Part shown: piece by piece, positions 27,264 to 37,742 of the stretch
How the letters are laid out: every line of letters starts with the position of its first letter
Position numbering within the stretch: position 1 is the first letter of the stretch
Source: an uncultured Acidobacteriota bacterium
Lineage (GTDB): Bacteria; Acidobacteriota; Terriglobia; Terriglobales; Acidobacteriaceae
Direction: 5' to 3'
NCBI GenBank assembly: GCA_903873705.1
Contig: CAIQPK010000092.1
Span: forward strand, 1-64,000
Length of the DNA stretch: 64,000 bases
Notes under the pieces: generated by a model
The model's database searches: none
Told to the model about the DNA's origin: nothing
The model's input: only the letters and a program-made list of their open reading frames with translations
Translations under genes and position numbers: made by a program

Positions 27264-27379
27264 TGCTTGTGCTCCCTGGCGCTCGCCTGCGGCGGGCTGC
27301 CTGCATAGTCTCATGGTGAAAATTGCTGCGGCAACCGCCGGCGGTCACTAATCCGCAAGGAGGCAGTGACCTGCAGGGG

Positions 27380-27484: not shown

Positions 27485-28273
27485 ATGAAGCTCTCGCGTA
27501 TTGCCCTGGTGACGTCGGTGGCGGCCTTGTGCTGCGTGGGGTTGAAGGCGTTTCAGCGGACCGCGGACTTTGGCTTTGGGAATGATGACTCGCCTTCGAA
27601 TGTTAAGTCGGAGTTCTACTGGTCACGGCTGGCGTTTGCCTCGGGGATGCGGGGTTATGGCGGGTATTACAGCCGGTATGCGTGGTCGCGGGACTACCCA
27701 AAAGCCGACCGGCAGTTCCTGATTGCGATGCACCGGCTGACGCGGATCGATGGGCGGCCCACTGAGCAGGTGGTGACACTCGATTCCGACGAAATTTTCA
27801 ACTATCCGTGGATTTATGCCGTGCAGGTGCAGGAGTGGACGTTTACCGACGCGGAGGCCAAGCGGCTGCGGGAGTTTCTGCAGAAGGGCGGCTTCCTGAT
27901 GGTGGACGACTTTCATGGCACCGAGGACTGGGAGAATTTTATGAACGGCATGCGCCAGGTACTGCCCAACAGCACGGTGGAAGACCTGCAGAGCGGTGAC
28001 GAGCTCTTTCATACGCTTTACGACATCGACGACAAGATGCAGATACCCGGTGAGCAGTGGATACGCACCGGGCGCACCTACGAAAAGGACGGCTATCAGC
28101 CAAAGTGGCGGGCGATCCGCGATGACAAGGGACGCATCGTCGTCGCGATTTGCCACAACATGCACCTGGGCGATGCGTGGGAGTGGGCCGATGATCCGAA
28201 CTATCCTGAGCCGTTCGCTTCGATGGCGTTCCGCGTGGGGCTGGACTACATTCTGTACGGCATGACGCACTGA
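27485..28273 (+). CDS. DUF4159-domain exported protein
   Basis: 262 residues with signal peptide MKLSRIALVTSVAALCCVGLKA. Body contains ADFGFGNDDSPSNVKSEFYWSRLAF, YPKADRQFLIAMHRLTRI, DEIFNYPWIYAVQVQEWTFT, LREFLQKGGFLMVDDFHGTEDWENF and AICHNMHLGDAWEWAD, the pattern of DUF4159, which has a class I glutamine-amidotransferase-like fold without its catalytic Cys. It is usually found with MoxR, DUF58 and VWA genes. First gene of the cluster; GGAGG lies 8 bases before the ATG. Confidence 0.87.
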   Translation: MKLSRIALVTSVAALCCVGLKAFQRTADFGFGNDDSPSNVKSEFYWSRLAFASGMRGYGGYYSRYAWSRDYPKADRQFLIAMHRLTRIDGRPTEQVVTLDSDEIFNYPWIYAVQVQEWTFTDAEAKRLREFLQKGGFLMVDDFHGTEDWENFMNGMRQVLPNSTVEDLQSGDELFHTLYDIDDKMQIPGEQWIRTGRTYEKDGYQPKWRAIRDDKGRIVVAICHNMHLGDAWEWADDPNYPEPFASMAFRVGLDYILYGMTH

Positions 28274-28358: not shown

Positions 28359-30644
28359 ATGTTTGAGTTTTTGTTTCGGTACCCGTTTACGGTGTTCAGC
28401 AAAGGCCAGTTGATCCTGCTCGGCGCCTGGCCGGGGTGGGTGCTGGTGTTGCTGATTGCTGCCGCGGCGGGTGAGCTGGCGTGGCTGGTGCGGCTCCGGC
28501 TGAAGGACGCCGCGCCGAAGTTGCAGGGATGGCGCGGCTGGGCGCTGTGGGGGATGCAGTCGGCGATGGTGGCACTGCTGTTTTTGTTGTTGTGGCAGCC
28601 GGCGGTGCGGGTGGCGGAGTTGAGCTCGGAACAGAACATTATTGCGGTGGTGATTGACGACTCGCACAGCATGGCGGTGGCGGACAGCGACGGCAAAACG
28701 CGCGACGCGGCTGCCGTGGCGGCGTTGAATGACGGTGTGCTGGCGGCGCTGAGGAAGCGGTTTCAGACGCGGATTTACCGGCTGGGGAGTGGGCTGACGC
28801 GCATCGACGATCCAAAGACAGTGACACCGAGTGAGACGGCCACGCACATCGGAGATGGGTTGAAGCAGCTGGCAACGGAGACGGCGGACCTGCCGGTGGG
28901 TGCCGTTGTGCTGCTGAGCGACGGTGGCGAGAATGCTGTTGGAATGGGCGGGTCTCGGATTGGCGTGGACGCGCTACAGGCGTTGCGCAACCGGCGGCTG
29001 CCGGTTCATACGATCGCCTTTGGAAGCGAACAGCAAATCCGCGATGTGGAGATGGAGGATGCGAGCGTGGCGCCGAATGCGATGGCGAATGCGCGCATGA
29101 CGGCGACATTGAGTTTTGTTCAGCAAGGCTATGCGGGGCAGAAGGCGACCATTACGGTGCGCGAGGGGGAGAAGGTGCTCGCGGGGCGGGAGGTGACGCT
29201 GGCGGCGAATGGGGTGATCCAAACGGAGCCGCTGTTTTTTTCTGCGGGAGCCGCCGGCGCGAAGCTGCTGAAGTTCAGCGTGGACCCGCTGGCGGGTGAA
29301 GAGAATGTTGCGAACAATGCGCTGAACCGGCCGGTGCTGGTGAGCGACGCGAAGAAGCGGATTCTGTACATCGAAGGCGAGCCGCGGTGGGAGTTTAAGT
29401 TCATCCGACGGGCCGAGGATGACGATCCGACGATTCAGCTGGTGACAATGCTGCGGACCAGCGAGAACAAAATCTATCGGCAGGGTTTGAGCGGACCGAC
29501 GGAGTTGGCGGAAGGGTTTCCCGTACGGGCCGAGGACTTGTTTGGGTACGCGGGAATCATCATCGGGTCAGTGGACGCGGACTACTTTACGCCGCTACAA
29601 CAGGAGTTGCTGCGGGAGTATGTGGACCGGCGCGGCGGTGGGATTTTGTTCCTGGGCGGGCGGTCTTCACTGAGCGATGGTGGATGGAATGCGTCCGCGC
29701 TGAATGACGTGCTGCCGACGTTTCTGCCGAGTGGGAGGAATAGCTTTCATCGCAACTCGGCGACGGTGGAGCTGACGGCAGCAGGTGTGGAGTCGCCGAT
29801 AACGCGGCTGCTGGATGATCCGGCAAAGAATGCGGAGCGGTGGCGGCGGCTGACGTATCTTGCCGACTATGAAGACCCGGGGACGCCGAAGCCGGGGGCG
29901 ACGGTGCTGGCGGAGATGCATGCGCGTGGAGCAAAACTGCCGCTCCTGATCACGCAAAATTACGGGCATGGCAGAACGGCGGTGATGGCAACCGGAGGGA
30001 CGTGGCGGTGGCAGATGAGCGAGGCTGTGAATGATCCCTCGCATCATCTTTTCTGGCAGCAGTTGTTGCGCTGGCTGGCGGCCGACACGCCTGGGCCGGT
30101 GACGGGTTCGATGCCGGCGAGAATGCTGCAGGACGAGGGCCGGGTGCGGCTTTCGGCGATGGTGCATGACAAGCAGTTTCAGCCGGCGACAGACGCGCAT
30201 GTGACGGCGCATATCGAAGGGCCGCAGGGTGTGACGGCGCTGGTGGATCTATCGCCCTCGCAGGATACGCCCGGGCTTTTCCAAGGGGAGTGGACGGCGG
30301 AGAAACCGGGTCCTTATCTCGCGGAGATTACGGCCGATGCTACGGGGAGTGCGCCGCAGGAGCTGGGACGTGATGTGCTGACGTTTCAACGTGAGGATGG
30401 CGTAGCGGAGAATTTTCATACGGCGCAGAATCGCGGGTTGCTCGAGCAGTTGGCGAAGGAGACCGGCGGGCGCTACTGGAAGCCGGCGGAGGTGAAAGAT
30501 CTGCCGCGTGATATTTCCTACTCGGAGGCGGGAATTTCGGTGCGGAATACACATGAGCTTTGGAATATGCCGATCGTGTTTGTGGTGCTGCTGGGGCTGG
30601 CGTTGACGGAGTGGCTGCTGCGGCGGAAGTGGGGTGTCGTATGA
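28359..30644 (+). CDS. VWA / glutamine-amidotransferase-like membrane protein of the MoxR cluster
   Basis: 761 residues. Two N-terminal membrane helices (about 18-38, 66-80), then a von Willebrand A domain with MIDAS D100-x-S102-x-S104, a stretch with the amidotransferase-like fold (KKRILYIEGEPRWEFKFIRRA; ILFLGGRSSLSDGGW; YGHGRTAVMATGGTWRW) and a C-terminal membrane helix (about 733-752). It should be an inner-membrane protein with a large periplasmic part. Families of this layout accompany MoxR/DUF58 in alphaproteobacteria and acidobacteria; function unknown. The stop overlaps the next gene (ATGA). Confidence 0.82.
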   Translation: MFEFLFRYPFTVFSKGQLILLGAWPGWVLVLLIAAAAGELAWLVRLRLKDAAPKLQGWRGWALWGMQSAMVALLFLLLWQPAVRVAELSSEQNIIAVVIDDSHSMAVADSDGKTRDAAAVAALNDGVLAALRKRFQTRIYRLGSGLTRIDDPKTVTPSETATHIGDGLKQLATETADLPVGAVVLLSDGGENAVGMGGSRIGVDALQALRNRRLPVHTIAFGSEQQIRDVEMEDASVAPNAMANARMTATLSFVQQGYAGQKATITVREGEKVLAGREVTLAANGVIQTEPLFFSAGAAGAKLLKFSVDPLAGEENVANNALNRPVLVSDAKKRILYIEGEPRWEFKFIRRAEDDDPTIQLVTMLRTSENKIYRQGLSGPTELAEGFPVRAEDLFGYAGIIIGSVDADYFTPLQQELLREYVDRRGGGILFLGGRSSLSDGGWNASALNDVLPTFLPSGRNSFHRNSATVELTAAGVESPITRLLDDPAKNAERWRRLTYLADYEDPGTPKPGATVLAEMHARGAKLPLLITQNYGHGRTAVMATGGTWRWQMSEAVNDPSHHLFWQQLLRWLAADTPGPVTGSMPARMLQDEGRVRLSAMVHDKQFQPATDAHVTAHIEGPQGVTALVDLSPSQDTPGLFQGEWTAEKPGPYLAEITADATGSAPQELGRDVLTFQREDGVAENFHTAQNRGLLEQLAKETGGRYWKPAEVKDLPRDISYSEAGISVRNTHELWNMPIVFVVLLGLALTEWLLRRKWGVV

Positions 30645-31564
30645 GGCGCGCGTTGTTGTTGTTGGCTTCCCTGCTCGCGCTCCAGGCGCGGGCAGCGACG
30701 TACTACGTCACGGTGTCGGGTTTGGGTGGTGAGCCGGATTATGAGCAGCGGTTTGCGGCGGAGGCGAAGGACCTGGATAAGGTGTTCAAGGCGGGAGGGA
30801 GTGCGGCGCAGGTCTATACCCTGAGCGGGACGCAGGCTACCGCGGCGCAGTTGAAGGAGACGCTGGCGACGGTGGCGCGGAGCGCGAAGCCTGAGGATGA
30901 TTTTGTGCTGATCCTTATTGGCCATGGGTCGTTCGATAACGTGGAGTACAAGTTCAACCTGGTGGGGCCTGACCTGACGGGCGCGGAGATTGCCGCGCTG
31001 TGCGACCGTGTACCGGCGCGGCGGCAGCTTGTGGTGGTGGCGACGAGTGCGAGTGGGGGCGCGCTGGCGGCGCTGGAGCGCACGGGGCGCGGTGTGATTG
31101 CGGCGACGAAGTCGGGCACGGAGAAGAATGCGGTGGTATTTGGGCGGTACTGGGTGGAGGCGTTGCAGGACTCGGCTGCGGATACAGACAAGAGTGACGC
31201 GGTGAGTGCGATGGAGGCATTCACTTACGCGACGAAGAAGACGGCGGCGTTTTATGACTCGCAGAAACGTATTGCGACCGAGCATGCGGTGTTTGACGAC
31301 ATTGGGCGCGGTGAGGCGGTGCGCGAGGCAGGCGGTGGTCAGGGCACGCTGATGTCGAACTTCACCGTGCTCCGGCTGGGGGCGAGTCAGCAGGCGGCGA
31401 ATGATCCGGCGCGGCGGGCGCTGCTGGCGAAGAAGGAAGAGCTGGAACAGAAGATCGACATGCTGAAGTATCAGAAGGCGGCGATGGATCCGCAGGATTA
31501 TCGGAAGCAGTTGACCGATGCGCTGGTGGAACTGGCGAAGACGCAACAGGAGCTGGATAAATGA
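30641..31564 (+). CDS. Caspase/legumain-fold (clan CD) protein lacking the catalytic cysteine
   Basis: 307 residues with signal peptide MRRALLLLASLLALQARA. Residues about 20-190 look like a C13/C14 caspase-type fold: a strand ending in the catalytic His (FVLILIGHGSF, His95-Gly96) and a second strand QLVVVATSASGG where Cys of the usual AC-x-SG is Ser136. C-terminal helices (about 240-307) are charged and coiled-coil-like (ALLAKKEELEQKIDMLKYQKAAM). If the reading is right it is a pseudo-protease or a Ser-variant. Overlaps both neighbours by ATGA, so it is a fixed part of the MoxR cluster. I do not recognise a named family; the fold assignment is by motif. Confidence 0.65.
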   Translation: MRRALLLLASLLALQARAATYYVTVSGLGGEPDYEQRFAAEAKDLDKVFKAGGSAAQVYTLSGTQATAAQLKETLATVARSAKPEDDFVLILIGHGSFDNVEYKFNLVGPDLTGAEIAALCDRVPARRQLVVVATSASGGALAALERTGRGVIAATKSGTEKNAVVFGRYWVEALQDSAADTDKSDAVSAMEAFTYATKKTAAFYDSQKRIATEHAVFDDIGRGEAVREAGGGQGTLMSNFTVLRLGASQQAANDPARRALLAKKEELEQKIDMLKYQKAAMDPQDYRKQLTDALVELAKTQQELDK

Positions 31565-33756
31565 CGCGCGCGCTCACTGCCGCTTCCTTGCTTCTGGCTT
31601 GCGCTGCGCCGGCGCTTGCGGCGGTGCCTGCTGATTGCTGGACGATGCGCAAGCATGGGCATCGTCCAGAGGCGGAGAAGTGTTTCGATGGGCTGACGCA
31701 ATCCAGCGATGCGTACTTTCGCGCGGAGGGTTTCTGGGGGCTGGAGGAGTGGCAGGCGGCGAACGAGCAGTTTCGTTTAGCGACGCAGGCCGCTGCGAGC
31801 AAGGCGCCGTACAAGGTGCGGTGGGGGCTGCTGTTGCATGAGCGGTTCAACAATGCGCAGGCTGCGGACCTGTTTCATGAAGCGCTGGCGAAGGACCCCG
31901 CGAATGCTGACGCCTACATCGGCCTGGCGACGGTGTCGGCAGATGGTTTTGATGGCAAGGCGATGGCGTACGCAGCCAAGGCTGTGGAGCTCGATCCGAA
32001 GCTGGCGAAGGCGCATGAGTTGATGGCGACGCTGGCGCTGGAGAACGATGACCGTTTTGCCGCTGCGGCGGAGGCGGATAAGGCGCTGGCACTCGAGAGC
32101 GATGCGCTGGATGCGATGGCGATTCATGCGGCACTGGAGTTGATCGCGGACAAATCGCCGGATGCATGGTTTGCGAAGATGAACGCGATCAATGCGAACT
32201 ACGGCGAAGGGTATGCGGCGGTGGCGCATCATCTGGAGCTGCATTATCGGTATGACGATGCGGTCGTGTACCTGCGTAAGGCGGTGGCGGCTGATCCGCG
32301 GCTGTGGTCGGCGCACTCGGCGCTGGGGATTGAGTTGATGCGGCTGGGCAAGGAAGATGAGCCGCTGAAGGAACTTGAGCTTAGCTATAACAATGAGTAT
32401 CGCGATGCGGCTACGGTGAATAGCCTGCGGCTGCTGGATAGTTATAAGAACTTCGACGTGCTGCGTGATGACACGACCGTGGTTAAGTTCAACAAGCAAG
32501 AGACCGCGCTGCTGCGGCTTTATATGCAGACGGAGCTGCATACGATCCTGGCGACGTATGAGAAGAAGTACAAGATGCACCTGGATGGACAGGTGCAGGT
32601 CGAGGTTTATCCGGACCACGAAGACTTTGCCGTGAGGACGATGGGCATGCCGGGGCTGGGTGCGCTGGGTGTGACGTTTGGGCAGGTGGTGGCGATGGAT
32701 TCTCCGTCGGCGCGCAAGCCGGGGGACTTCAACTGGGGCGCGACGCTGTGGCATGAGATGAGCCACGTGTTCATCATTACGGCGACGCATGGACGCGTGC
32801 CGCGATGGTTTACCGAAGGGCTCGCGGTGCATGAGGAGGGCGAGCGGTCGGCGGAGTGGGCCAACCGCGTGACGCCGGATGTGCTGGTCGCGATCCGCGA
32901 CAAGAAGCTGCTGCCGGTGGCGAAGCTGGATCGCGGGTTTGTGTATCCGGAGTATCCGTCGCAGGTGCTGGTGTCTTACTTTCAGGCGGGGAGTATCTGC
33001 GACTTTATCAAGGCGACCTGGAATGAAGACAAGCTGCTGGGGATGGTGCACTCCTATGCGGTGCTGAAGTCGACGCCCGATGCGATACAGGAAAACCTGG
33101 GTGTGACTGCCGAGGAGTTCGACAAGCAGTTTCTGTTATGGATTGACAAGAAGTACGGTGCGGAGGCGGCGCACTTCGATGAGTGGCGTAAAGGGCTGAA
33201 GGGACTGGTCGCGGCGTCGGAGGCGCAGCAGTATGACGCGGTGCTCGCAGAGGGGCCGGCGGTGGTGGCACTGAATCCGGAGTACGTGGACGATGCGAAT
33301 GCGTATGAGTTGATGGCAGCGGCTGACAAGGCGAAGAACGACAGCAAAGCTGAAGCAGCAGCACTCACCCTGTATATGCACCAGGGTGGGCAGAGCCCGG
33401 CCGTGTTGAAACGGCTGGCTGAGCTGGAGAAGACAGCGGGACAAGACGTTGAAGCAGCTGCGACGCTGGCGCGCATCAACTACATCTATCCGGTGAAGGA
33501 TGAGGCACTGCATCGTGAGCTGGGCGACTTATTGCTGGCGCAGAAGAATTATGACGGCGCGATTCGCGAGGACCAGGCGGTGATCGCATCGCATCCGCTG
33601 GATCAAGCGGGAGCAGCGTTTCATTTGGCCGAGGCCTACATGGCTGCGGGACAAAAGGATAAAGCTGAAGAGAGCGTGCTGCAGGCGCTCGAGGTTGCGC
33701 CGGGTTACAAGCCTGCGCAGAAGTTGTTGCTGGAACTGAACGCAAAGACTAACTGA
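31561..33756 (+). CDS. TPR protein with gluzincin-type zinc peptidase domain
   Basis: 731 residues, signal peptide MTRALTAASLLLACAAPALA. N-terminal TPR-like repeats (about 40-270), a peptidase MA-like domain with HEMSH (398-402) and Glu419 in WFTEGLAVHEE, 16 residues after the second His, giving a complete zinc site, then more TPR repeats (about 540-731). The architecture suggests a periplasmic protease held in a complex by its TPRs. It starts inside the stop of the caspase-fold gene, so a peptidase and a pseudo-peptidase are made together. Confidence 0.82.
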   Translation: MTRALTAASLLLACAAPALAAVPADCWTMRKHGHRPEAEKCFDGLTQSSDAYFRAEGFWGLEEWQAANEQFRLATQAAASKAPYKVRWGLLLHERFNNAQAADLFHEALAKDPANADAYIGLATVSADGFDGKAMAYAAKAVELDPKLAKAHELMATLALENDDRFAAAAEADKALALESDALDAMAIHAALELIADKSPDAWFAKMNAINANYGEGYAAVAHHLELHYRYDDAVVYLRKAVAADPRLWSAHSALGIELMRLGKEDEPLKELELSYNNEYRDAATVNSLRLLDSYKNFDVLRDDTTVVKFNKQETALLRLYMQTELHTILATYEKKYKMHLDGQVQVEVYPDHEDFAVRTMGMPGLGALGVTFGQVVAMDSPSARKPGDFNWGATLWHEMSHVFIITATHGRVPRWFTEGLAVHEEGERSAEWANRVTPDVLVAIRDKKLLPVAKLDRGFVYPEYPSQVLVSYFQAGSICDFIKATWNEDKLLGMVHSYAVLKSTPDAIQENLGVTAEEFDKQFLLWIDKKYGAEAAHFDEWRKGLKGLVAASEAQQYDAVLAEGPAVVALNPEYVDDANAYELMAAADKAKNDSKAEAAALTLYMHQGGQSPAVLKRLAELEKTAGQDVEAAATLARINYIYPVKDEALHRELGDLLLAQKNYDGAIREDQAVIASHPLDQAGAAFHLAEAYMAAGQKDKAEESVLQALEVAPGYKPAQKLLLELNAKTN

Positions 33757-33784: not shown

Positions 33785-34810
33785 ATGGCATTTACTGATT
33801 TGAATAGCGATGCGGCAGAACTCCAGCAGCACATTGAACGCTTTCACGTGGTGCGCGATGCGATTGTGAAGCAGGTGCGCGAAGTGATCGTGGGACAGGA
33901 CGAGGTGATCGATCAAATATTGATTGCGCTATTCGTCGGTGGACACTGCCTGTTGACCGGCTTGCCCGGCACCGCGAAGACACTAATGGTGAGGACAATT
34001 GCCGAGGCGCTGGGGCTGCAGTTTCAGCGCATCCAGTTCACGCCGGACCTGATGCCTTCGGACATTACCGGTACCGACATCGTCGAGGAAGACCTGACGA
34101 CCGGCCATCGCAGGTGGACGTTTGTGCCCGGGCCGATTTTTGGGAATATCGTGCTGGCTGACGAGATCAACCGCACACCGCCGAAGACGCAGGCAGCGTT
34201 GCTGGAGGCGATGCAGGAGCGCTCGTGCACGGTGCGCGGGAATATTTATAAATTGCCGGCACCATTCTTTGTGCTGGCTACCCAGAACCCGATTGAGCTG
34301 GAGGGGACGTATCCGCTGCCGGAGGCGCAGCTGGATCGCTTCCTGTTCAATGCAACGCTGGATTACCTGAGTGCGGAGGATGAGTTGAAGGTGGTGGACC
34401 TTACCACCGCGACGCGGGCACCGAAGATTGAGACGGTGACGACAGCGGAAGAGCTGCTGAGTTTCCAGCGGCTGGTGCGGATGGTGCCGATTGCGGAGTC
34501 GCTGGCGAAGTATGTGGTGAGCCTGGTGCGGGCCACCCGACACAAGAGCGAGAACGCGCCGGATTTTGTGAAGAAGTATGTGAACTATGGCGGCAGCATT
34601 CGAGCGGCGCAGTTTATTGTGCTGGCGGCGAAGGCGCGGGCACTTTCAAGGAAGCGCTACCACGTGACTTATGAAGACATCACAGCGCTGGCGGTGCCGG
34701 TACTGCGGCATCGCATTCTGCTGAATTTTCATGCGGAGTCTGAACGGATTGATACGGATGAAATTTTGCATCGGCTGATTGCGCATGTCGCGCGGCCGAA
34801 GGAGAGCTGA
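33785..34810 (+). CDS. MoxR-type AAA+ ATPase
   Basis: 341 residues. Walker A GLPGTAKT (59-66), Walker B NIVLADEINRTPPKTQAALLEAMQER (from 121), sensor region FFVLATQNPIELEGTYPLPEAQLDRFLF and the C-terminal AAA-lid. MoxR ATPases act as chaperones that insert cofactors or assemble VWA-domain partners; DUF58 and BatA partners follow directly. The stop shares one base with the DUF58 start (TGATG). GAGG lies about 8 bases before the ATG. Confidence 0.93.
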   Translation: MAFTDLNSDAAELQQHIERFHVVRDAIVKQVREVIVGQDEVIDQILIALFVGGHCLLTGLPGTAKTLMVRTIAEALGLQFQRIQFTPDLMPSDITGTDIVEEDLTTGHRRWTFVPGPIFGNIVLADEINRTPPKTQAALLEAMQERSCTVRGNIYKLPAPFFVLATQNPIELEGTYPLPEAQLDRFLFNATLDYLSAEDELKVVDLTTATRAPKIETVTTAEELLSFQRLVRMVPIAESLAKYVVSLVRATRHKSENAPDFVKKYVNYGGSIRAAQFIVLAAKARALSRKRYHVTYEDITALAVPVLRHRILLNFHAESERIDTDEILHRLIAHVARPKES

Positions 34811-35700
34811 TGGAGCAGCGGTTCCTCGATCCGAAGGTTCTGGCCAGCATATCGTCGCTCGACCTGCTGGCGCGAACGGTGGTGGATGGCTTTGTGGCCG
34901 GCCTGCATCGCTCGCCGGACTTTGCCTTCAGTCATGAGTTCGCCGAGTACCGGGTCTATTCTCCCGGCGATGATTTGCGCCACGTGGATTGGAATCTTTA
35001 TGCGCGCAGCGAGCGCATGTACCTGAAACGGTTTCGCGGTGAGACGAACAGTCAGCTGACGGTGCTGCTGGATGCTAGCAACTCGATGCAGTATGCGTCG
35101 GGTAAGACGACGAAGATGGATTACGCGCGGTACGTGGCGGCGTCGCTGTTTTATCTCGCGATACGCAAGCAGCGCGATGCTGCGGGGCTGATTGTGTTCG
35201 ATGATGAGGTGCGCGATTATGTGCGGCCTTCGACGCGGCAGGGGCAACTGGCGCGGCTGTTTGCGTCGCTGGATGGCGCGGAGCCTCATGCGCGTACCGA
35301 TCTGGCTAAGCCGATGCGCCACTTTCAGGAGTTGCTGCGGCGGCGCGGGATTGCGATCGTGATTTCGGACTTCTATGAAGACCCGGAAGCGGTGGTGAAG
35401 GCGATTGAGCCGCTGCGGTTTCATGGCAATGAGGTGGTGCTGTTTCAGGTGCTCGATCCGCAGGAGATTCGACCGGTGTTGAAAGAGGCAGCTGTGCTGG
35501 TTGACCTGGAGACGGACGAGCGGATCGAGGTAGTGCCGGATTACGCGAAGACGACGTATCGCGAAAAGATGGATGCGCACATAGAGGCGCTGCGCACGCG
35601 GGCGCGGGGTGCAGGCATGGACTATCAGCTGCTGGTGACGGACCAGCCGTTGGATAACGCGCTGCGTGAGTACCTGACACTGCGCAAGGGGAAGAGCTGA
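34810..35700 (+). CDS. DUF58-domain protein
   Basis: 296 residues. The DUF58 signature HEFAEYRVYSPGDDLRHVDW continues with NLYARSERMYLKRF (42-76), followed by a VWA-like fold with D88-A-S90-N-S92 MIDAS residues. No membrane segment or signal, so it is cytosolic and is the usual direct partner of MoxR. Overlaps both neighbours by one base (TGATG). Confidence 0.92.
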   Translation: MEQRFLDPKVLASISSLDLLARTVVDGFVAGLHRSPDFAFSHEFAEYRVYSPGDDLRHVDWNLYARSERMYLKRFRGETNSQLTVLLDASNSMQYASGKTTKMDYARYVAASLFYLAIRKQRDAAGLIVFDDEVRDYVRPSTRQGQLARLFASLDGAEPHARTDLAKPMRHFQELLRRRGIAIVISDFYEDPEAVVKAIEPLRFHGNEVVLFQVLDPQEIRPVLKEAAVLVDLETDERIEVVPDYAKTTYREKMDAHIEALRTRARGAGMDYQLLVTDQPLDNALREYLTLRKGKS

Positions 35701-37742
35701 TGGGCTTCCTGGCGCCATGGTTTCTGGGTGGGCTGGCGGCACTGGGTGTGCCGGTGTTTGTGCATCTGCTGCGCAAGCATGTGACGACGCCGCGGCCAGT
35801 GGGGTCGCTGATGTTTTTCGAGCGCGGGACGCAGAGCTCGAGCAGGCACAGGCGGCTGCGGTATTGGCTGCTGTTCGCGCTGCGGTTTGCGCTGGTGTTG
35901 TTGGTGGTGCTGGCGTTTGCTAATCCGTTTGTGCGGCGGAACGCTGCGGACACAAAGGGGCAACTGCTGGTGATCGTGCTGGACAACTCGTTCAGCATGA
36001 GGGCGGGGACGCGGTTTGCGGATGCGAAGCGGGAGGCGCTGGCCGTGCTGGCTGCCAAGCCGAAGGAGCAGAAGGCGCAGGTGATGGCTCTGGGCGGGCA
36101 GCTGGCGATTCTGCTACAGCCGACGGTTGACGATGGGCCGCTGCGGGCTGCGCTGGAGAGTATTCAGCCGGGCGATGGTCATGCGAATTTTGGCGAGGTG
36201 GGGCGCGGGATTCGGACGTTGAGTGAGACGGTGCCGGGGCCGATCGATGTGCATCTGTTCAGCGATATGCAGAGGACGGCTACGCCGGGGAATTTTGCGG
36301 ACATGGTGTTGCCGGGTAATGCGACGCTCCATGTTCATGCCGTGGCGAAGGGTGCTACGCCGCCGAACTGGACGGTGGAGAGCGTGGATGCGCCGGCGGA
36401 TCTGGCCGATCCGAAGGACCCGAAGCGGTCGCGGGTGAAGGCGGTGGTGGTGGGGTTTGGGACGCCGGCGGCGGAGAAGACGGTGTCGCTGATGGTGAAT
36501 GGGAAGACGATTGCTACGCGCAAGGTGAACATTCCCGCGAATGGGCGCGCAACGGTGGAGTTTGCGCCGCTGGAAGTGGCTTACGGGTTCAACAAGTGCG
36601 CGGTGCGGATTGAGGGGGGCGATGCGTTCCCGGGGGACGATGCGAGTGTGTTCGCGGTGCGGCGGTCCGATCCGGAGCGGGTGCTGTTTATCCATGCTGC
36701 GGGAGAGACGCGGTCGACGTTGTACTTTGGCGCAGCGTTGACGGCAGCTTCGCAGGGATCGTTTCTGTTGCAGTCGGTTGCTGCGGAGCAGACGACAGAC
36801 CTTGATCCGGCGAAGTTTGCGTTTGTGGTGTTGTCGGATACGGCGGCGCTGCCTGCGATTTTTGAGCACACGCTGGAGCAGTACGTGGCGCGCGGCGGGA
36901 GCGTGATGATTGCGCTCGGCACGCACGCCGGGGCGCGGGCGCAGATTCCGTTGTGGCCTTCGGCGGTCAAGGATGTTCGCAACTACGTGCGGACGGGCGG
37001 ATCGGCGGCGGTGGGTGAGGTGGACTTTACGCATCCCGCGCTGGAGGAGACGAAGCCCGGGCGCGACAACGGTGGATGGGCGGAGACGAAGGTGTTTTAT
37101 GCGGCAGTGGTCGATTCGGGGCAGGCGCGCGTGGTGGCGAAGCTGAGCGATGGGACGCCGCTGGTGCTCGACCGGCAGGTGGGCGAAGGGCATGTGCTGC
37201 TGCTGACGTCGGGGTTGGAAAATCTGACTAACGATCTGCCGCTGCATCCCGTGTTCGTGGCGTTTGTGGACCGCACGGCTCGGTATCTTTCAGGCAACGA
37301 GCGGCTGAGCGGGTCTCGGCTGGTGGATGCGTTCGTGCCACTGCGGGCGGCGAATGCTGCGGGCGAGCTTTCGAGTGTGGAAGTGATCGATCCGGTGGGC
37401 AAGCGTCCTCTCTCTCTTGCTGAAGCGCATACGGCGCAGACGCTGCAGCTGCAGCAGGCGGGGTTCTATCAGATACGGCTGGCGAATGGGCGCGATGCGG
37501 TGCTGGGGGTGAATCCGGACCGGCGGGAGTCTGACCTGGAGCCGATGGCGGCGGACGTACAACAGCTCTGGGCCGGCAGCGGTGCGAGCGGGCCGGTGGC
37601 GGAAACGAGCGCAACTGCAAATGTGACGAAATATCAACCCGTAAGCCTGTGGTGGTACGTTATGCTTCTTGCATTGGTCGTCGCGCTGGCGGAGACCGCC
37701 CTCGCCAGCGGCTACATGGGAACGCAGCGGGAGGACGCATGA
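35700..37742 (+). CDS. BatA-like VWA membrane protein
   Basis: 680 residues. N-terminal BatA double-helix domain (FLAPWFLGGLAALGVPVFVHLLRK; LRYWLLFALRFALVLLVVLAFANP), VWA with D95-N-S97-F-S99, a long periplasmic region (about 190-640) and a C-terminal helix (about 650-672). It resembles Bacteroides Bat proteins, which give aerotolerance, but no such role is shown here. Coupled to DUF58 (TGATG) and to the next gene (ATGA). Confidence 0.88.
   Translation: MGFLAPWFLGGLAALGVPVFVHLLRKHVTTPRPVGSLMFFERGTQSSSRHRRLRYWLLFALRFALVLLVVLAFANPFVRRNAADTKGQLLVIVLDNSFSMRAGTRFADAKREALAVLAAKPKEQKAQVMALGGQLAILLQPTVDDGPLRAALESIQPGDGHANFGEVGRGIRTLSETVPGPIDVHLFSDMQRTATPGNFADMVLPGNATLHVHAVAKGATPPNWTVESVDAPADLADPKDPKRSRVKAVVVGFGTPAAEKTVSLMVNGKTIATRKVNIPANGRATVEFAPLEVAYGFNKCAVRIEGGDAFPGDDASVFAVRRSDPERVLFIHAAGETRSTLYFGAALTAASQGSFLLQSVAAEQTTDLDPAKFAFVVLSDTAALPAIFEHTLEQYVARGGSVMIALGTHAGARAQIPLWPSAVKDVRNYVRTGGSAAVGEVDFTHPALEETKPGRDNGGWAETKVFYAAVVDSGQARVVAKLSDGTPLVLDRQVGEGHVLLLTSGLENLTNDLPLHPVFVAFVDRTARYLSGNERLSGSRLVDAFVPLRAANAAGELSSVEVIDPVGKRPLSLAEAHTAQTLQLQQAGFYQIRLANGRDAVLGVNPDRRESDLEPMAADVQQLWAGSGASGPVAETSATANVTKYQPVSLWWYVMLLALVVALAETALASGYMGTQREDA

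What the first reader, a model, noticed from the sequence alone, without database searches (positions are those of the whole stretch)
30641..31564. Caspase/legumain-fold protein with Cys replaced by Ser
Seen: LILIGHG (His95) and VVVATSASGG, where the clan CD Cys of AC-x-SG is Ser136; signal peptide and coiled-coil tail. Known: clan CD peptidases need His and Cys. Inferred: a pseudo-protease scaffold, or a Ser nucleophile variant.
Basis: partly seen in the sequence, partly recalled or inferred. Interest (0 to 1): 0.62.

Follow-up and report, generated by a model that had tools for sequence, protein, structure and literature searches.

The report
Protease-fold protein without its cysteine
A secreted acidobacterial protein has kept the shape and one key residue of a family of protein-cutting enzymes but has lost the cysteine that does the cutting, and it travels with the same membrane partner, so it is probably a binding or structural part of a cell-envelope machine and not a working protease.

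Summary
Window 30641-31564 (+) encodes a 307-aa, probably exported protein with a confident caspase/legumain fold (AF2 pLDDT 90.3; legumain Z 20.3, 2.5 A over 195 residues; metacaspase-4 Z 19.9). A profile of 89 family members finds metacaspase-4 at E 2e-6, with Ser136 in the catalytic-Cys column. In 173 distinct family sequences His95 is invariant (173/173); position 136 is Ser in 153, E/P/N/G/T/A in 20, never Cys, with at least 13 Ser/non-Ser changes on the tree. His95 ranks 1st of 301 columns for conservation, Ser136 65th. This argues against Ser136 as an obligate nucleophile and for a His-retaining pseudopeptidase. A VWA/GATase1-like membrane protein is encoded just upstream in 116 of 122 loci, mostly in a Bat/MoxR-type operon. 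In 299 genomes the two genes co-occur almost perfectly: both 128, one alone 3, neither 168. Best reading: a catalytically inert, legumain-like periplasmic subunit of a VWA/MoxR complex. Cys-to-Ser caspase homologues, and inactive caspases in MoxR-vWA systems, are in print, so this is a new variant of a known kind.

The parts
30641..31564 (+). legumain/caspase-fold protein, 307 aa, Ser in the catalytic-Cys position
30641..30694 (+). probable signal peptide, residues 1-18 (cleavage ARA|A)
   Evidence: sequence by eye; hydrophobic stretch in 163 of 169 family sequences
30920..30928 (+). Gly94-His95-Gly96, clan CD His motif
   Evidence: His95 173/173 distinct sequences; conservation rank 1 of 301
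31046..31048 (+). Ser136, position of the clan CD Cys
   Evidence: aligned with Cys of metacaspase-4 and of 8 of 8 caspase-domain proteins in four MAFFT modes; Ser 153/173
31052..31054 (+). Ser138, two residues after the Cys position
   Evidence: Ser 171/173; rank 16 of 301; start of helix 138-145
31181..31216 (+). EF-hand-like loop D181-T-D183-K-S185-D-A-V188-S189-A-M-E192
   Evidence: oxygen-bearing side chains at loop positions 1, 3, 5, 9 and 12 in 173/173
31406..31558 (+). C-terminal helical hairpin, residues 256-306
   Evidence: helices 256-277 and 284-306 in the model; Tyr287 conservation rank 2 of 301
28359..30644 (+). partner: membrane protein with VWA (MIDAS) and GATase1-like regions; its stop overlaps the next start (ATGA)
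   Evidence: PF07090; MIDAS D100/S102/S104 in 118/118, 117/118, 118/118 relatives; co-occurrence
31561..33756 (+). TPR protein with Peptidase_MA_2 (HExxH) domain; start overlaps the previous stop (ATGA)
   Evidence: HExxH 135/135 distinct relatives
27485..28273 (+). DUF4159 protein (longer ORF opens at 27323)
   Evidence: PF13709 E 9e-42
33785..34810 (+). MoxR-type AAA+ ATPase
   Evidence: PF07726 E 1e-60
34810..35700 (+). DUF58/VWA protein
   Evidence: PF01882 E 2e-43
35700..37742 (+). BatA-like VWA membrane protein
   Evidence: PF07584 E 1e-16; TIGR02226
37739..41491 (+). DUF4175-like coiled-coil protein (weak match; start chosen by eye)
   Evidence: PF13779 E 4e-4, below its cut-off

Best explanation
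It is a His-retaining, Cys-less pseudopeptidase of the legumain/caspase fold. Shown by computation: the fold; Ser where the catalytic Cys should be; tolerance of six other residues there; an invariant His95; an EF-hand-like loop; near-obligate pairing with a VWA/GATase1-like membrane protein in a Bat/MoxR-type operon. Inferred: the protein is exported, folds around a Ca2+ ion, docks on the periplasmic VWA/GATase1 part of its partner, and uses its emptied substrate groove and C-terminal helical hairpin to hold a peptide or subunit, with no cutting. The MoxR ATPase and DUF58 protein, and the neighbouring metallopeptidase with its intact HExxH, would supply energy and any proteolysis. What the complex acts on is not known.
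For: Fold: AF2 pLDDT 90.3, pTM 0.85; legumain 5lua Z 20.3, 2.5 A/195 residues, metacaspase-4 6w8r Z 19.9, 3.0 A/206. Homology: profile against PDB metacaspase-4 E 2e-6 with Ser136 on Cys; Peptidase_C13 matched by 49 of 89 members at E<=10, best 1e-9. Inertness: 0 Cys in 173 sequences, 20 non-Ser, at least 13 Ser/non-Ser changes on two trees; all 20 keep His95, Asp111 and Ser138; a Glu136 member keeps the fold (pLDDT 91.7, legumain Z 20.4). The Asp two residues before the Cys in 8 of 8 aligned caspase-domain proteins is absent from the family (mostly T/M/A). Partner: 116 of 122 loci; 128 both, 3 one alone, 168 neither, of 299 genomes. The adjacent metallopeptidase keeps HExxH in 135/135.
Against: Ser136 is still Ser in 153 of 173 (85% after weighting), more than a free position would show, and 7 of the 20 exceptions sit in a second-copy type of locus (7 of 17 such loci) to which the window does not belong; outside it the exceptions are 13 of 156. 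An invariant His is not explained by a bare scaffold. No binding, export, calcium or complex formation was tested; coordinates of the model could not be measured. Topology of the partner was judged by eye.
Confidence: 0.65

Rival explanations
1. An active serine hydrolase: Ser136 replaces the Cys as nucleophile, with His95 as base, in most members; members without Ser lost activity secondarily.
For: Ser136-His95 pair kept in 153 of 173; the window protein belongs to the locus type where Ser is kept in most members.
Against: At least 13 Ser/non-Ser changes while every other conserved residue checked stays; conservation rank 65 of 301; the Asp that precedes the Cys by two in caspase-domain proteins is gone. 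No clan CD serine peptidase is known to me (recalled).
Confidence: 0.12
2. A repurposed active site built on His95 (with Ser138 and conserved acids Asp111, Asp181, Glu214) that binds a metal or ligand or does other, non-thiol chemistry; position 136 is irrelevant.
For: His95 is the most conserved of 301 columns; Asp181, Asp111, Glu214, Glu192 and Ser138 rank 3, 4, 7, 8 and 16. Ser138 is Ser in 171/173 here but only in 4 of 8 Cys-bearing relatives.
Against: Asp181 and Glu192 are explained by the EF-hand-like loop; Ser138 may simply cap the helix that starts there. Side-chain distances could not be measured.
Confidence: 0.17
3. The gene order is a relic and the protein has no current role.
For: Patchy presence: 129 of 299 genomes of the class.
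Against: Loss follows the partner almost exactly (3 discordant of 299); invariant residues across two phyla.
Confidence: 0.04
4. A different fold; the GHG and SASGG motifs are chance.
For: The window protein alone has no Pfam match at E<=10, and as a single sequence its best PDB match is E 0.037.
Confidence: 0.02

Closest known systems
Legumain (peptidase family C13, clan CD)
   Same: Best structural matches, Z about 20; 49 of 89 family members match Pfam Peptidase_C13 at E<=10 and 5 of 10 tested members pass its cut-off; Gly-His-Gly; a helical C-terminal part follows the fold, as legumain's LSAM domain does (passages of PMC4357240).
   Different: No catalytic Cys (0 of 173); the window protein itself does not match the Pfam model; the C-terminus is a two-helix hairpin; prokaryotic operon with VWA/MoxR genes.
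Metacaspases / orthocaspases (C14)
   Same: Profile match to metacaspase-4 at E 2e-6; profile-profile probability 99.2 with Acidobacteriota caspase-domain proteins; EF-hand-like loop pattern also found in 5 of those 8 (the position of the loop was not checked in each).
   Different: Those 8 carry Cys; this family lacks it and the Asp two residues before it.
Pseudo-orthocaspases and TbMC1/TbMC4
   Same: Caspase homologues with Ser in place of Cys; TbMC1 has His plus Ser (passage of PMC6426788). Cys is most often replaced by Ser among prokaryotic caspase homologues with substitutions, 43% (passage of PMC3501461).
   Different: The commonest bacterial pseudo-type is Tyr-Ser; here His is invariant. 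Those papers' passages do not mention a VWA/MoxR operon partner.
Inactive caspases of MoxR-vWA ternary conflict systems
   Same: Inactive caspase domain tied to a vWA and MoxR pair; [quoted passage not shown]
   Different: There the domain is fused to the vWA protein in systems built around a third component such as VMAP; here it is a separate exported protein in a conserved, Bat-like gene order.
SERA5 of Plasmodium (papain fold, Ser for Cys)
   Same: A Ser-for-Cys protease fold shown to act non-enzymatically; its Ser can be Ala without phenotype (abstract of PMC4671257).
   Different: Unrelated fold and organism.
Bat (aerotolerance) operons
   Same: MoxR, DUF58, BatA-type VWA and TPR genes in order.
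   Different: Extra DUF4159, VWA/GATase1-like and this protein. Deleting bat genes in Leptospira biflexa changed neither growth nor oxidative tolerance (abstract of PMC3557215), so 'aerotolerance' is not a safe function.

Membership tests
Clan CD (caspase/haemoglobinase fold) | six-strand caspase/legumain fold | tested here: met
   predicted structure only:
Clan CD peptidases | Gly before the catalytic His | tested here: met
   Gly94-His95 in all 201 aligned domains that cover it; feature as in passages of PMC12445089
Clan CD peptidases | His-Cys dyad | tested here: not met
   His 173/173, Cys 0/173
Clan CD peptidases | peptidase activity | not testable with these tools
   needs purified protein
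Pfam Peptidase_C13 | score over Pfam's cut-off of 22.8 bits | tested here: not met
   window protein: no match at E<=10. Relatives: 5 of 10 chosen members pass, best 30.6 bits
Pfam Peptidase_C14 | score over Pfam's cut-off of 21.4 bits | tested here: not met
   window protein: no match at E<=10; 5 of 89 members match at E<=10, best 9.5e-5
Pseudo-orthocaspase (Tyr-Ser type) | Tyr in place of His and Ser in place of Cys | tested here: not met
   His kept in 173/173; Ser in 153/173
Bat/MoxR-type operon | MoxR, DUF58 and BatA-type VWA genes side by side | tested here: met
   window; a MoxR match somewhere in the fetched stretch of 90 of 109 loci with at least 4.5 kb downstream
MoxR-vWA ternary conflict systems | VMAP, iSTAND, FtsH or beta-propeller third component | not tested
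   no search for these components was made; none is among the families of the 8 operon proteins, though MoxR matches bpMoxR, PF20030, at E 1.6e-13

The most novel reading that the evidence does not exclude
A whole lineage of legumain-like proteins has abandoned thiol chemistry yet built a new, strictly conserved active or ligand site on the old catalytic His (His95 with Ser138 and invariant acids), serving as the signal- or peptide-reading subunit of an envelope VWA/MoxR machine; in the members that keep Ser136 it may even act as a serine hydrolase, which would be a catalytic type I know of in no clan CD enzyme.
Probability: 0.2. Interest if true: 0.8.

Novelty: new variant of a known kind. 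Interest (0 to 1): 0.5.

Why it matters
Bat/MoxR operons are widespread and their role is unsettled. A dedicated, exported pseudo-legumain that is gained and lost with one VWA membrane protein gives a concrete handle: it predicts a stable pair, a bound peptide or subunit, and a function that needs His95 but not the old nucleophile. It also extends pseudo-caspases from the cases in print to a deep, mostly acidobacterial family that the Pfam caspase and legumain models miss in the window's own genome.

Tried and rejected
Ser136 as the conserved nucleophile: set back by 20 non-Ser sequences and at least 13 changes.

Looking for a Cys-bearing relative of the same operon: none among 173 sequences. 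So a Cys-bearing ancestor elsewhere is not excluded.

Alignment at the active site: HMMER and four MAFFT modes put Ser136 on the Cys. The hhalign alignment opens a two-residue gap there and puts Ser136 on the Ser two residues after the Cys. I prefer the ungapped version because SG falls on SG, but this is a disagreement.

Rows dropped: of 11 caspase-like ORFs found in the 10 fetched stretches, 8 went into the Cys alignment; L129, which itself reads GCG and lacks the Cys, L121 and L127 were left out. From the family alignment, rows under 250 residues and identical rows were dropped before counting, which left 173. Seven of 136 matching genomes had only weak matches (best E from 4.7e-6 to 9.3e-4) and were not counted as having the gene. 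The 6 of 122 loci without the partner just upstream are L156, L179, L182, L195, L200 and L205.

HU-alpha (NCBIfam, E 0.001, 19 bits against a cut-off of 162; also PDB): chance. Contamination of the contig: the gene is absent from 27 of 27 genus mates searched and the partner from 24 of 24, but a neighbouring gene, QueG-like (family name recalled), has relatives of 60-73% identity in the 18 mates searched; undecided.

Papers: searches of the held library listed no paper on this family that I recognised from titles and abstract starts; that does not show it is unpublished.

Full report
Observation. The ORF at 30641-31564 (+) is real: ATG at 30641 overlapping the stop of the gene before it, stop overlapping the start of the gene after it, 307 aa. 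Alone, the protein has no Pfam match at E<=1 or E<=10.

Fold. AlphaFold2 on 63 sequences gave pLDDT 90.3 and pTM 0.85. Foldseek's first 19 PDB rows are legumains (best E 2.8e-7), followed by caspases, MALT1 and others among further legumains. VIA-align gave Z 20.3 with 2.5 A over 195 residues for human legumain (5lua), Z 19.9 with 3.0 A over 206 for metacaspase-4 (6w8r) and Z about 17 for caspases. The best row (4nol, Z 20.8) has 5.3 A over 228 residues.

Sequence evidence. A profile from 89 members matched metacaspase-4 at 2e-6; in the wild-type chain (6w8s, E 3.2e-6) Ser136 stands on the Cys of SDSCHSGG. Of those 89, 49 match Pfam Peptidase_C13 (best 1e-9), 6 C25 and 5 C14 at E<=10. The family profile also picks up caspase-domain proteins of the same class, which pass Pfam's C14 cut-off in 5 of 5 tested; in four MAFFT modes His95 stands on their His and Ser136 on their Cys in 8 of 8. 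Profile-profile comparison gave probability 99.2, but with a two-residue shift at this spot. The aligned caspase-domain proteins have Asp two residues before the Cys (8 of 8); the family has mostly T, M or A there.

Conservation. In the first 90 sequences (one gene present twice, as L002 and L090) His95 is 90/90, position 136 S84 E4 P1 N1, Ser138 90/90. With loci from across the phylum, 173 distinct sequences of 250 residues or more: His95 173, position 136 S153 E6 P4 N3 G3 T2 A2 and no Cys, Ser138 171. Most records are named or placed as Acidobacteriota; L040, L057 and L064 bear titles of other phyla, as metagenome bins sometimes do. Jensen-Shannon ranks among 301 columns: His95 1, Asp181 3, Asp111 4, Glu214 7, Glu192 8, Ser138 16, Ser136 65; the 20 non-Ser rows all keep His95, Asp111 and Ser138. 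Parsimony on a FastTree and on an IQ-TREE quick tree, both built without the site's columns, needs 13 Ser/non-Ser changes; direction cannot be told. Seven of the 20 exceptions are among the 17 loci of a second type, with a DUF4175-like gene upstream of the partner; 13 are among the other 156 sequences, not all of which have known context. A second model, of a Glu136 member (L064), is equally confident (91.7) and equally legumain-like (Z 20.4, 2.5 A over 192).

A calcium-type loop. Residues 181-192 read DTDKSDAVSAME. Oxygen-bearing side chains stand at positions 1, 3, 5, 9 and 12 in 173 of 173, and 16 of 89 members touch Pfam EF-hand_5 weakly (best E 0.0036). Five of the 8 caspase-domain proteins contain a similar pattern somewhere. 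Calcium binding is inferred, not shown.

Surroundings. The window order is DUF4159, VWA/GATase1-like, this gene, TPR with Peptidase_MA_2, MoxR, DUF58, BatA-like, DUF4175-like. Of 140 loci examined, 138 contain the gene. A VWA/GATase1-like gene lies just upstream in 116 of the 122 with enough sequence, the TPR/metallopeptidase gene just downstream in 89 of 122, and a MoxR match somewhere in the stretch in 90 of 109. In the same 299 genomes of the class, strong matches to this gene occur in 129 and to the partner in 130: both 128, this gene alone G115, the partner alone G087 and G113 (81, 82 and 92% complete), neither 168. The partner's MIDAS residues are kept (118/118, 117/118, 118/118), and the metallopeptidase's HExxH in 135/135. 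The Gemmatirosa kalamazoonensis plasmid carries partner, this gene, TPR, DUF4159, MoxR, DUF58 and BatA in line, so the set is not confined to one phylum.

Mechanism. The pattern fits an exported pseudo-legumain that works as a subunit with the VWA protein. Export, docking, calcium and peptide holding are inferences. The partner's topology, with the VWA and GATase1-like part outside, rests on reading its three hydrophobic segments and their flanking charges by eye. The unexplained part is why His95 is the most conserved residue of all when the nucleophile position is free to vary; hence the rival of a repurposed His site.

What is known. Passages of PMC3501461 and PMC6426788 report caspase homologues with Ser for Cys, TbMC1 with His-Ser among them. 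Section 12 of PMC7159879 reports that about 70% of caspase domains in effector position of MoxR-vWA systems are inactive and may bind peptides. So neither the substitution nor the link with MoxR and VWA is new in kind. What I did not find in the searches listed is this separate, exported, legumain-like family with its near-obligate partner.

Verdict. Observation confirmed; pseudo-protease reading favoured at 0.65; serine nucleophile 0.12; repurposed His site 0.17.

Noticed in passing
window 31181-31216: EF-hand-like loop inside the p10-like half of the protein, with oxygen ligands at five loop positions in 173 of 173 sequences.
   Followed up: partly
window 31561-33756: The next gene is a TPR protein with an intact HExxH...E metallopeptidase motif (HExxH 135/135), beside a peptidase fold that lost its nucleophile.
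   Followed up: partly
L167, L170, L171, L172, L174, L176, L178, L185, L186, L188, L191, L192, L193, L203, L204, L206, L207: A second locus type, DUF4175-like gene, partner, this gene, in which Ser136 is replaced in 7 of 17; several genomes hold both types.
   Followed up: partly
L222 (Gemmatirosa kalamazoonensis plasmid NZ_CP007129.1): The operon lies on a 1.1-Mb plasmid in another phylum; the first part of this gene is in a different frame from the rest in that record.
   Followed up: partly
whole window contig (G000:C92): None of 27 genus mates has this gene and none of 24 has the partner, though other genera of the family do: repeated loss, transfer or a foreign contig.
   Followed up: partly
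window 28359-30644: The partner's GATase1-like region (PF07090) shows no obvious catalytic Cys by eye; the operon may hold more than one disabled enzyme domain.
   Followed up: no
L129 (window-class genome G156): A caspase-like protein that reads GCG for GHG and lacks the Cys, another degenerate caspase in the class.
   Followed up: no
window 30518-31546 (-): A 342-aa antisense ORF covers nearly all of this gene; long antisense ORFs recur through the region, as expected of GC-rich DNA.
   Followed up: no
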